Positions 1 to 59,418 of a DNA stretch of 59,418 nucleotides are shown piece by piece (within the stretch, counting starts at the first letter, position 1; each line of letters opens with the position of its first letter). Position numbers and translations under genes: made by a program. Source of the stretch: Trueperaceae bacterium (lineage in GTDB: Bacteria > Deinococcota > Deinococci > Deinococcales > Trueperaceae). The notes beneath the pieces were generated by a model, which was not told the origin of the DNA, made no database searches, and saw only the letters and a list, made by a program, of their open reading frames with translations. Location of the stretch: positions 688,360 through 747,777 of the forward strand of contig CP070651.1 of the NCBI GenBank assembly GCA_020354625.1, in the 5' to 3' direction.

Positions 1-33
1 GATACCTGCTTACATAATTTTGGCAACCGCTTT
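1..33. repeat. Right-end fragment of the 106-bp dispersed repeat (copy C)
   Basis: The first 33 bases match the right ends of the full copies at 33423-33528 and 59089-59194 with three differences from the latter. They hold the right stem arm (GATACCTGC) and the conserved GGCAACCGCTTT end. The left part lies outside the window. Unrelated sequence starts at about base 34, which fixes the right boundary of the element. Confidence 0.85.
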
Positions 34-32457: not shown

Positions 32458-33426
32458 ATGGAACACATTGCTGTACTCACAAGCGGCGGCGACGCACCCG
32501 GAATGAACGCAGCCATCCGAGCCGTGGTGAGAACCGCTATCCACGAAGGCATAAGGGTCTCGGCGGTATACCGCGGGTACCAGGGTTTGATCGACGGTGA
32601 CATCGAGGAGATGGGCCCCCGGAACGTAGCGAACATCATCCAACGGGGGGGGACCATTTTAAAAACCGCACGATGCCCCGCCTTTTTCGAGGCAGAAGGC
32701 CGCCGTGTCGCCGCAACCAATCTCAGTAAGCGCGGTATCGAAGGCCTGATCGTGATCGGTGGAGATGGCTCGTTTCGTGGAGCGCACCTCCTCGGCGAAG
32801 AACAAGGCGTACCGGTCATCGGAATCCCAGGCACCATCGACAACGATATCTACGGCACCGATGTAACCATAGGTTTCAACACAGCGATCAACATCGCCCT
32901 CGATGCCCTAGACCGGCTCCGTGACACGGCAGCAAGTCACGATCGCCTCTTTCTGATCGAGGTCATGGGTCGTGAATCGGGCCATATCGCTCTCTACGTC
33001 GGAGTGGCAGGTGGAGCTGAAGCGATCTTGGTGCCCGAACACGACACCCGAGCAGAACACGTGATAAACGTGATTCTAAACGCTCAAAAGAGAGGAAAGA
33101 CATCGAGCGTTATCGTGGTGGCTGAAGGAGCCTACCAAGGAGGAGCCCTCGAGCTCCAAAACAAAATACAGCCACACTGCACCTACGAGGTGCGCACCAG
33201 CATTCTCGGTCATATTCAGAGGGGTGGGAGTCCGAGTACACGTGATCGAGTCCTCGCCTCGAGGCTAGGCTACGTCGCGGTCAAAAGTCTTTTGACACGC
33301 CGGGCTGGCGTTATGGTCGGCGCCGATCAGCGCGGCACCACCCACGTACCATTTATTGAAATCTGGAACAACATCAAAGTTCTCGATGAGGAACTGTTCG
33401 ATATAGCTTCTGTTCTCGCCATTTAA
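32458..33426 (+). CDS. pfkA: ATP-dependent 6-phosphofructokinase
   Basis: Phosphorylates fructose 6-phosphate at the committed step of glycolysis. The 322-aa product has LTSGGDAPGMNAAIR (phosphate binding), IGGDGSFRGA with the Gly typical of ATP-dependent rather than PPi-dependent enzymes, PGTIDNDI (catalytic Asp), VMGRESGHIAL and LGHIQRGGSPS. The ATG at 32458 gives the family start MEHIAVLTSGG; a GTG at 32446 lies directly after TATACT (32440-32445). The TAA stop is the first part of the left end of repeat copy A. Confidence 0.96.
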   Translation: MEHIAVLTSGGDAPGMNAAIRAVVRTAIHEGIRVSAVYRGYQGLIDGDIEEMGPRNVANIIQRGGTILKTARCPAFFEAEGRRVAATNLSKRGIEGLIVIGGDGSFRGAHLLGEEQGVPVIGIPGTIDNDIYGTDVTIGFNTAINIALDALDRLRDTAASHDRLFLIEVMGRESGHIALYVGVAGGAEAILVPEHDTRAEHVINVILNAQKRGKTSSVIVVAEGAYQGGALELQNKIQPHCTYEVRTSILGHIQRGGSPSTRDRVLASRLGYVAVKSLLTRRAGVMVGADQRGTTHVPFIEIWNNIKVLDEELFDIASVLAI

Positions 33427-33528
33427 AGCAGGTATCATCTGGTCATAGACAAAGTCAGTGGGTGAAATACTATCCTGTAGTCCGTTTCTTGGATGACACC
33501 TGCTTACGTAATTATGGCAACCGCTTTA
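33423..33528. repeat. 106-bp dispersed palindromic repeat, copy A
   Basis: It aligns without gaps to 59089-59194, with 11 differences over 106 bp. It begins TTAAAGC and ends GCTTTA, so the tips are inverted repeats. Inside lies the left arm GCAGGTATCATC and a right arm GATGACACCTGC (one mismatch in this copy). Inner segments shared by both copies include GACAAAGTCAG and TCCTGTAG. The left tip provides the last bases and stop codon of pfkA. The right end forms part of the zwf leader and opens a reading frame in phase with zwf. Confidence 0.9.
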
Positions 33529-57787: not shown

Positions 57788-59092
57788 GTGACTGCCACAA
57801 CAACCAGGACAGCAGAGCTCTATAAGCGTTACCAAGAGGCCCTATTTCCTGCTGTCTCACCCCTTTATGGTGATGAACCACTAGCGGTGGAAAGAGCCAA
57901 AGACCAATTCGTATGGGATATCGAGGGGAAACGTTACCTCGATTTTTTTGGCGGGGTCCTCACAGTTTCGGTGGGGCACTGTAACGAAGAGATCACAGCA
58001 GCGACTGTCGAGCAGCTCCACAAAGCGCAACACACCTCCACGCTCTATATCAACGAGTTGATGGTTGCCGTAGCTGAAAAGGTTGCCCAACTCACCCCTG
58101 GCCGCCTTCAAAAGTGCTTTTTTACCAGCAGTGGGAGCGAGGCCAACGAGACAGCGCTCACCGCAGCGCGTATGTATACCGGAAACCGAGACGTCATCAC
58201 CTTGCGACACGCCTACTCGGGACGAACAGCGACGGCAATGAGCCTCACGGCACACGGCAGCTGGCGCTTGGGTGGTGTATTCGATGGCAGCATCAAACAC
58301 GTACGTAATCCCTATACCTACCGCTCCCCCGTCGATTTAACCGAGGATGAGCTTCTCGATCTCTGCGTCCAAGATCTCGAGGAGACACTCGCCACTGTCA
58401 CTGACGGGAAAATCGCCGCCTTCATGGCCGAGCCGATCCAGGGTGTAGGTGGTTTTATCGTCCTGCCGAAAGACTACTTTAAACGCATTCTGCCCATCGT
58501 CAAGGAAGCGGGGGGTGTCCTGATCATCGACGAGGTCCAAACGGGTTGGGGACGCACGGGCACCCACATGTGTGGTATCGAGCATTGGGAGGTAATGCCC
58601 GACATCATGACCTTTGCAAAGGGCATGGCAAACGGCTCCCCCATCGGCTGCACCATCGCCACACCGGAGATCGCCGATGCCCTGCAGGGGCAAACGTTTG
58701 CGACTTTTGGTGGAAATCCCGTGACGATGGCTGCGGCGCTCGCCACCATCGAGTATATCGAAAACAACAGACTCCCTGAAAACGCATCCTCGCAGGGTAA
58801 GCGCCTCGAAACGAGGCTGCTAGCATTGCAAGGCGAGCACACCTTCATCGGTGACGTCAGGGGCATGGGCCTTATGCAGGCGCTCGAGCTCGTCGAACCG
58901 GGACCTGAGAAACGCCCTGACCCGAAGCGAGCAGCCGCACTGATCGGAGCTGCCAGGAAGAACGGGCTCCTGATCGGCAAAGGTGGTCTCTACGGCAATG
59001 TGATCCGAATCGCACCCCATCTCAACGTCACCGCGAGCGACCTCGACGCCGGGTGCGACATCATCGAGCAATCGCTCAGAGATATCGCTTAA
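57788..59092 (+). CDS. Class III aminotransferase (beta-alanine / 3-aminoisobutyrate type)
   Basis: PLP-dependent omega-aminotransferase. In this context it probably turns beta-alanine and 3-aminoisobutyrate, the final amines of pyrimidine breakdown, into semialdehydes using pyruvate or glyoxylate. The 434-aa product has LDFFGGVLTVSVGHCN, SSGSEANETALTAAR, IIDEVQTGWGRTG and the PLP lysine Lys278 in TFAKGMANG, most like the AGXT2 branch. GGAGG lies 5 nt before the GTG. Its TAA stop is formed by the left tip of repeat copy B. Confidence 0.88.
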   Translation: MTATTTRTAELYKRYQEALFPAVSPLYGDEPLAVERAKDQFVWDIEGKRYLDFFGGVLTVSVGHCNEEITAATVEQLHKAQHTSTLYINELMVAVAEKVAQLTPGRLQKCFFTSSGSEANETALTAARMYTGNRDVITLRHAYSGRTATAMSLTAHGSWRLGGVFDGSIKHVRNPYTYRSPVDLTEDELLDLCVQDLEETLATVTDGKIAAFMAEPIQGVGGFIVLPKDYFKRILPIVKEAGGVLIIDEVQTGWGRTGTHMCGIEHWEVMPDIMTFAKGMANGSPIGCTIATPEIADALQGQTFATFGGNPVTMAAALATIEYIENNRLPENASSQGKRLETRLLALQGEHTFIGDVRGMGLMQALELVEPGPEKRPDPKRAAALIGAARKNGLLIGKGGLYGNVIRIAPHLNVTASDLDAGCDIIEQSLRDIA

Positions 59093-59194
59093 AGCAGGTA
59101 TCATCTGGTCATCGACAAAGTCAGCGGGTGAAAACCTGTCCTGTAGCCCGTTGCTTGGATGATACCTGCCTACATAACTATGGCAACCGCTTTA
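59089..59194. repeat. 106-bp dispersed palindromic repeat, copy B
   Basis: The full copy pairs perfectly: GCAGGTATCATC (59094-59105) with GATGATACCTGC (59158-59169). Tips are TTAAAGC and GCTTTAA. An inner CGGG (59125-59128) pairs with CCCG (59147-59150); in copy A both change (TGGG and TCCG) yet G-U pairs keep the stem. The left tip contains the aminotransferase stop. No transposase is coded, so it is not a complete insertion sequence; MITE-like or SNR-like elements are the nearest known types. Confidence 0.9.
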
Positions 59195-59349: not shown

Positions 59350-59418
59350 ATGAACACCCATCCCCGATACCAGCATACCCTAGAAGATCTGTTCCTCACA
59401 GTGTTCGTCTACATCGAC
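59350..59418 (+). CDS. Start of a possible transposase (cut by the window end)
   Basis: ATG 59350 opens a frame that runs through the end of the window (23 codons: MNTHPRYQHTLEDLFLTVFV, then three more). The pattern HTLEDLFLTVF is like the N terminus of DDE transposases in Deinococcus insertion sequences, but so short a piece cannot be assigned safely. GGGGGA lies about 15 nt upstream. Confidence 0.4.
   Translation, partial: MNTHPRYQHTLEDLFLTVFVYID

What the first reader, a model, noticed from the sequence alone, without database searches (positions are those of the whole stretch)
33423..33528. A 106-bp palindromic repeat family with two full copies and one partial copy in 59 kb
Copies at 33423-33528 and 59089-59194 align without gaps with 11 differences (about 90% identity). 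A third copy enters at 1-33. All have a right end GGCAACCGCTTT and the full copies have TTAAAGC/GCTTTA tips. Three copies in one window suggest a large number in the genome. None carries a transposase. Deinococcus genomes are known to hold short repeats (SNRs) of 60-215 bp, but I do not know this sequence among them.
Basis: seen in the sequence. Interest (0 to 1): 0.72.

Follow-up and report, generated by a model that had tools for sequence, protein, structure and literature searches.

The report
Transposase-less jumping DNA repeat in Trueperaceae
The repeat is one of about fifty copies of a short, gene-less jumping DNA element in a Trueperaceae genome; it makes a small duplication where it lands and often sits exactly on a gene's stop codon without damaging the gene, so it is a new family of a well-known kind of bacterial parasite DNA.

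Summary
The unit is 105 bp (TAAAGCAGGTATCATC...GGCAACCGCTTTA). The 4.29 Mb genome holds 48 near-complete copies plus at least 3 cut by 100-N assembly gaps, among them the one at window 1-33. Copies lie on both strands, with mean pairwise identity 93%. None of the 48 lies inside a called gene, and 26 sit between convergent genes. In 16 the left-end TAA is exactly the stop codon of an intact gene (7.5% expected by chance). Two copies end both of two converging genes. In the window, phosphofructokinase ends exactly where its Trueperaceae homologs end.

Other Trueperaceae carry relatives with the same left end. One genome shows target-site duplications at 43 of 45 sites: TGA/TCA (3 bp) or TA/AA/TT/CA (2 bp), usually flanked by C and G. 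Compensatory base changes are absent, and no transposase with matching ends was found. Best reading: a non-autonomous DNA transposon (MITE), moved in trans by an unidentified transposase. It behaves like pneumococcal RUP, including the enrichment between convergent genes. The stop-codon landings follow from target preference plus loss of harmful insertions. It is a new family of a known kind. Tandem arrays of the left end alone in relatives remain unexplained.

The parts
33424..33528 (+). full copy of the 105-bp element, inserted in the stop codon of phosphofructokinase
   Evidence: 93% to consensus; TA at both ends; PFK homologs end at the same residue
33424..33438 (+). left end TAAAGCAGGTATCAT (LE)
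   Evidence: near-invariant in 30 aligned copies; the 17-mer AGCAGGTATCATCTGGT recurs in other Trueperaceae
33492..33505 (-). internal inverted copy of the left end
   Evidence: the repeat finder: 14 nt, 93% complementary to 33426-33439
33514..33528 (-). right end ATGGCAACCGCTTTA, imperfect inverted repeat of the left end
   Evidence: the repeat finder: 15 nt, 73% complementary; invariant GGCAACCGCT
59090..59194 (+). full copy of the element, inserted in the stop codon of a class III aminotransferase gene
   Evidence: 94% to consensus; gene 57887-59092 ends on the element's TAA; Aminotran_3 covers the C-terminus
1..33 (+). right end of a third copy, cut by an assembly gap
   Evidence: 100% to consensus positions 72-104; 100 N precede it in the genome
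32458..33426 (+). phosphofructokinase gene (322 aa) whose stop codon TAA is the first 3 bases of the element
   Evidence: PF00365; 322-aa homologs in three Trueperaceae ending ...VLAI...ILAI or ...VLAT
57887..59092 (+). class III aminotransferase gene whose stop codon is supplied by the element (start possibly further upstream, 57788)

Best explanation
It is a family of miniature, transposase-less DNA transposons (MITEs). A transposase supplied in trans recognises the two unequal ends (TAAAGCAGGTATCAT and TAAAGCGGTTGCC), and the element integrates at a short TA-containing target with duplication of the target (TA here; TGA, TCA or 2-bp sites in relatives). The target preference, plus loss of insertions that break genes or promoters, leaves copies mostly in 3' flanks, between convergent genes and exactly on stop codons. 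There the element's own TAA restores the stop. Shown: copy number, ends, placement, target duplications in a relative, intact gene ends. Inferred: DDE-type transposition in trans, and selection as the filter. Unknown: which transposase.
For: 48 near-full copies on both strands with fixed TA...TA ends and unrelated flanks. Mean 4.4 differences from consensus, with two copies identical to it, so spread was recent. In relative G009, 43 of 45 copies have identical 2-3 bp flanks (11.9 expected after shuffling), with TSDs TGA 18, TCA 10, AA 5, TA 5, TT 3, CA 2. A second 105-bp family B abuts A with exactly one shared TA at four places (B coordinates). 16 of 48 copies sit on stop codons versus 7.5% of allowed TAA/TAG sites (P 2e-7); 26 of 48 lie between convergent genes versus 21% of sites. 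PFK, RuvA, Ald, pyruvate kinase and EtfA end at their natural C-termini. No transposase gene fits in 105 bp.
Against: No parent element was found. No DDE_3 transposase is in the host genome, and the listed DDE_3 and DDE_Tnp_1 loci lack matching ends. In the host genome the TA duplication cannot be told from fixed terminal TAs without close empty sites. TSD length varies between 2 and 3 bp in G009. Tandem arrays of the left end in relatives are not predicted by simple cut-and-paste.
Confidence: 0.87

Rival explanations
1. A conserved structured RNA or transcription terminator kept at gene 3' ends for its function, and copied only incidentally.
For: 3'-end and convergent placement; the consensus folds into a long hairpin.
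Against: No pair shows compensatory change within the family or across diverged relatives. No terminator-like site was found at the 33.4 kb copy. Only 16 of 48 are flush with a gene end, and 7 lie between divergent genes.
Confidence: 0.06
2. A REP/REPIN-like repeat moved by a Y1 (RAYT) transposase: the left end and its internal inverted copy would be the paired REP, and the tandem left-end arrays in relatives would be BIME-like clusters.
For: Inverted pairs and tandem arrays of a 17-22 bp motif in G001, G009 and G017.
Against: Clean target-site duplications, which REPs do not make as far as I know; distinct right end; very few solitary motifs in the host genome.
Confidence: 0.05
3. The element actively targets stop codons, for example through gene-end chromatin or transcription, rather than a DNA motif plus selection.
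For: 16 of 48 exact stop hits, and 9 of 45 in G009 (8 of these among the 28 copies with TGA/TCA duplications) where 5.7% of allowed TGA are stops.
Against: Conditioned on lying within 50 bp of a gene end the excess is weak (16 of 25 versus 45% expected, P 0.04); within 150 bp it is 16 of 31 versus 29%, P 0.006. In G009 the same C-TGA-G motif is used in intergenic DNA.
Confidence: 0.1

Closest known systems
RUP, repeat unit of pneumococcus (107 bp MITE; PMC2229807, PMC3049150)
   Same: Length about 105 bp, TA at the ends, no gene, tens to a hundred copies, enriched between convergent genes.
   Different: Unrelated sequence; RUP has a candidate mobiliser (IS630-Spn1) in its host, while none was found here.
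BOX repeats of pneumococcus (PMC3049150)
   Same: In 36 cases the repeat supplies the stop codon of an otherwise untruncated gene, as here.
   Different: Modular boxA/B/C structure; no sequence likeness.
Small noncoding repeats (SNRs) of Deinococcus radiodurans (PMC1978522)
   Same: Short high-copy noncoding repeats in the same phylum.
   Different: SNRs are mosaic; this family was not found outside Trueperaceae in the genomes searched.
MITEAba12 (PMC6382973)
   Same: 113-bp transposase-less element with target duplications, close in size and style.
   Different: 9-bp duplications and a known parent, ISAba12.
MIRU of mycobacteria (PMC12548453)
   Same: Inserts at gene boundaries with little damage to the gene.
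   Different: Sits at start codons of downstream genes and carries a coupled ORF.

Membership tests
bacterial MITE | short (<200 bp), no coding capacity for a transposase | tested here: met
   105 bp in 48 copies
bacterial MITE | terminal inverted repeats | tested here: met
   imperfect 15-16 bp, 73-75% complementary; internal inverted copy of the left end is near perfect
bacterial MITE | target-site duplication | tested here: met
   43 of 45 copies of the G009 relative; in the host genome TA at both ends of nearly all copies and one TA shared with family B
bacterial MITE | resident parent element with the same ends | tested here: not met
   no match among DDE_3 or DDE_Tnp_1 loci; other transposase families not searched. 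This feature is usual but not required: many accepted MITEs lack a known parent, e.g. SPRITE (PMC3049150)
IS630/Tc1-derived MITE (RUP type) | IS630-family (DDE_3) transposase with matching ends | tested here: not met
   none in the host genome; the copies listed in relatives have other ends
IS5-family-derived MITE | TSD of type TA or TNA | tested here: met
   TA in the host; TGA/TCA in G009. The TSD types of IS5 subgroups are from memory
IS5-family-derived MITE | IS5-family transposase with matching ends | tested here: inconclusive
   only PF01609 searched; no matching ends
Deinococcus SNR | sequence match to SNR families | tested here: inconclusive
   no match at E 1e-5 in 100 relatives outside Trueperaceae, which speaks against it; the SNR sequences themselves were not at hand
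structured RNA element | compensatory base changes | tested here: not met
   0 pairs with double changes; no Rfam match there
REP/REPIN | RAYT (Y1) transposase in the genome | not tested

The most novel reading that the evidence does not exclude
An old Trueperaceae-wide mobile system whose 17-bp left end is kept while the rest diverges. It is moved by an unrecognised enzyme with a flexible 2-or-3-bp stagger at C-T(N)A-G, and it leaves tandem stubs of its own ends (20-24 or 32 bp units, up to 7 copies) as a by-product of an unusual one-ended reaction.
Probability: 0.15. Interest if true: 0.55.

Novelty: new member of a known kind. Interest (0 to 1): 0.36.

Why it matters
It gives Trueperaceae genomes a named, countable mobile element. 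It is a second clear case, after pneumococcal BOX, of short repeats supplying stop codons to intact housekeeping genes. It also explains assembly breaks: three copies are cut by scaffold gaps and the window itself begins at one. For annotators, the stop codon of such genes is transposon DNA. The diverse relatives with clean target duplications make the search for the mobilising enzyme practical.

Tried and rejected
RNA element: covariation tests on 30 close copies and 24 diverged relatives gave no compensatory change; Rfam found only a tRNA in the window. IS630 parent: no DDE_3 in the host; 20 loci in relatives have other ends. IS4/IS5-type parent: 30 PF01609 loci, no matching ends. Longer host elements with the same ends: end motifs pair at 105 bp (the list was truncated). 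Plasmids, phages and viral contigs: no match. Gene truncation as the reason for terminal stops: rejected, because PFK and four other genes end naturally and most right flanks begin with A or G, as a split TAA/TAG would. Deriving a conserved left end from the G001 copies: not used as proof of selection, since those copies were found by searching with that motif. My first regex scan for copies timed out.

Full report
WHAT IS THERE. The two window copies differ at exactly 11 of 106 positions without gaps. The third is the right end of a copy: the window begins on the base after a 100-N gap of the scaffold (genome 688260-688359), and bases 1-33 match consensus positions 72-104 perfectly. In the whole genome (G000, 4,285,982 bases) a covariance model finds 48 near-complete copies on both strands, and three more are cut by N gaps. 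The unit is 105 bp, TAAAGCAGGTATCATCTGG...TTGGATGATACCTGCTTA...GGCAACCGCTTTA. The left end recurs inverted inside the unit (14 nt, 93% complementary), and the two outer ends are imperfect inverted repeats. Mean pairwise identity is 93%, with a mean of 4.4 differences from consensus. Two copies are identical to it, and a few diagnostic columns mark subfamilies.

HOST. The closest phosphofructokinase homologs are Trueperaceae MAGs at 67-71% identity. Relative G013 has 3,260,398 bases, the size I recall for Truepera radiovictrix. So the host is a Trueperaceae bacterium, not a Deinococcus.

PLACEMENT. With a simple codon-usage gene finder, no copy of the 48 lies inside a gene. 26 lie between convergent genes, 15 in tandem gaps and 7 between divergent genes. 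In 16 copies the first three bases of the element, TAA, are the stop codon of the gene to its left. In two of these the right end also supplies the stop of a converging gene: RuvA facing alanine dehydrogenase, and pyruvate kinase facing a D-threonine-aldolase-like gene (the last name is by eye). Among allowed TAA/TAG sites, 7.5% are stop codons; 16 of 48 has P 2e-7, and a control stratified by gene orientation gave a mean of 5.4 and a maximum of 15 in 20,000 draws. Much of this comes from closeness to gene ends: within 150 bp of a same-strand gene end the figures are 16 of 31 against 29% (P 0.006), and within 50 bp 16 of 25 against 45% (P 0.04). I therefore do not claim active targeting of stop codons. 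The genes are not truncated. PFK has 322 residues here and in three Trueperaceae homologs, which end ...VLAI...ILAI or ...VLAT and carry no insertion. RuvA, Ald, pyruvate kinase and EtfA match solved structures to within a few residues of their C-termini.

MOBILITY. Nearly all host copies carry TA at both ends, which alone does not prove duplication. Two further facts do the work. First, a second 105-bp family B (TAAACCGG...GACGGTTTA) abuts this one at four places with exactly one shared TA (coordinates). Second, the left-end 17-mer AGYAGGTWTCATYTGGT is abundant in five other Trueperaceae (G009 80, G001 78, G017 27, G021 15, G013 9 hits; reversed-pattern control 0-2), single in two and absent from the remaining 31 of the 39 family genomes searched. 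In G009 the elements run from T-AGCAGGTATCATCTGG to GTGAAAACCGCT-G, and 43 of 45 have the same 2 or 3 bases on both sides (11.9 expected after shuffling): TGA 18, TCA 10, AA 5, TA 5, TT 3, CA 2, mostly after C and before G. Nine of these 45 sit on TGA stop codons (5.7% of allowed TGA are stops; P 2e-5; one of the nine has a damaged duplication).

WHAT IT IS NOT. Neither the host family nor a set of 24 diverged relatives shows compensatory base changes. There is no Rfam hit and no terminator-like site at the 33.4 kb copy. No related sequence was found in plasmids, phages or viral contigs, nor at E 1e-5 in the other relatives tested beyond one Trueperaceae partial match.

MECHANISM. The anatomy fits a miniature non-autonomous DNA transposon moved in trans. 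The TA and TNA duplications resemble those that I recall for IS630 (TA) and for IS5-family subgroups (TA, TNA). But the host has no DDE_3 transposase, and the DDE_3 and DDE_Tnp_1 loci examined in relatives have other ends. Other transposase families were not searched. The enzyme is therefore open.

COMPARISON. RUP of pneumococcus is 107 bp, TA-ended and enriched between convergent genes, and BOX repeats supply stop codons in 36 genes without clear truncation (PMC2229807, PMC3049150). This family works the same way with unrelated sequence. SNRs of D. radiodurans are mosaic repeats absent even from D. geothermalis (PMC1978522), and nothing links them to this family.

OPEN. In G009, G017 and G001 the left end alone is often repeated 2-7 times in tandem (units of 20-24 or 32 bp, including a few bases of the local flank), and the right end three times in one place. 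Slippage, failed excision or one-ended transposition could each cause this; it was not resolved.

Noticed in passing
genome 1221849-1221953, 69697-69800, 3817550-3817653, 3201019-3201122, 2061343-2061446, 1489118-1489221 (outside the window): Second 105-bp repeat family B (TAAACCGGCTTTCAGTGC...GAAAGACGGTTTA) with TA ends; four of six full copies found share a TA with a copy of the first family.
   Followed up: partly
L095:3648-3754, L096:3241-3347, genome 3425482-3425586: Third family C, about 107 bp, TACAGCGGGTTGCAT...GCGCAACGCGCTTTA; one copy supplies the stop codon of a NUDIX-like ORF (L095:3211-3651).
   Followed up: partly
L242, L243, L244, L246, L248, L249, L341 (relatives G009, G017, G001): Tandem arrays of the left end alone (2-7 copies, 20-24 or 32 bp units) and of the right end (3 copies, 22 bp in L249).
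   Followed up: partly
flanks of copies at genome 378244, 1422205, 2298491, 2433950, 3030471, 3781268: Degenerate direct and inverted tracts of ACCCATCACTCATTACCCATC-like sequence in intergenic DNA near several copies.
   Followed up: no
window 1 and 59418: Both window ends coincide with 100-N scaffold gaps; the left one cuts a repeat copy and the right one lies in a putative transposase ORF.
   Followed up: partly
window 59350-59418: Start of an ORF, MNTHPRYQHTLEDLFLTVFVYID, that looks like an IS982-type transposase (recognised by eye, not searched).
   Followed up: no
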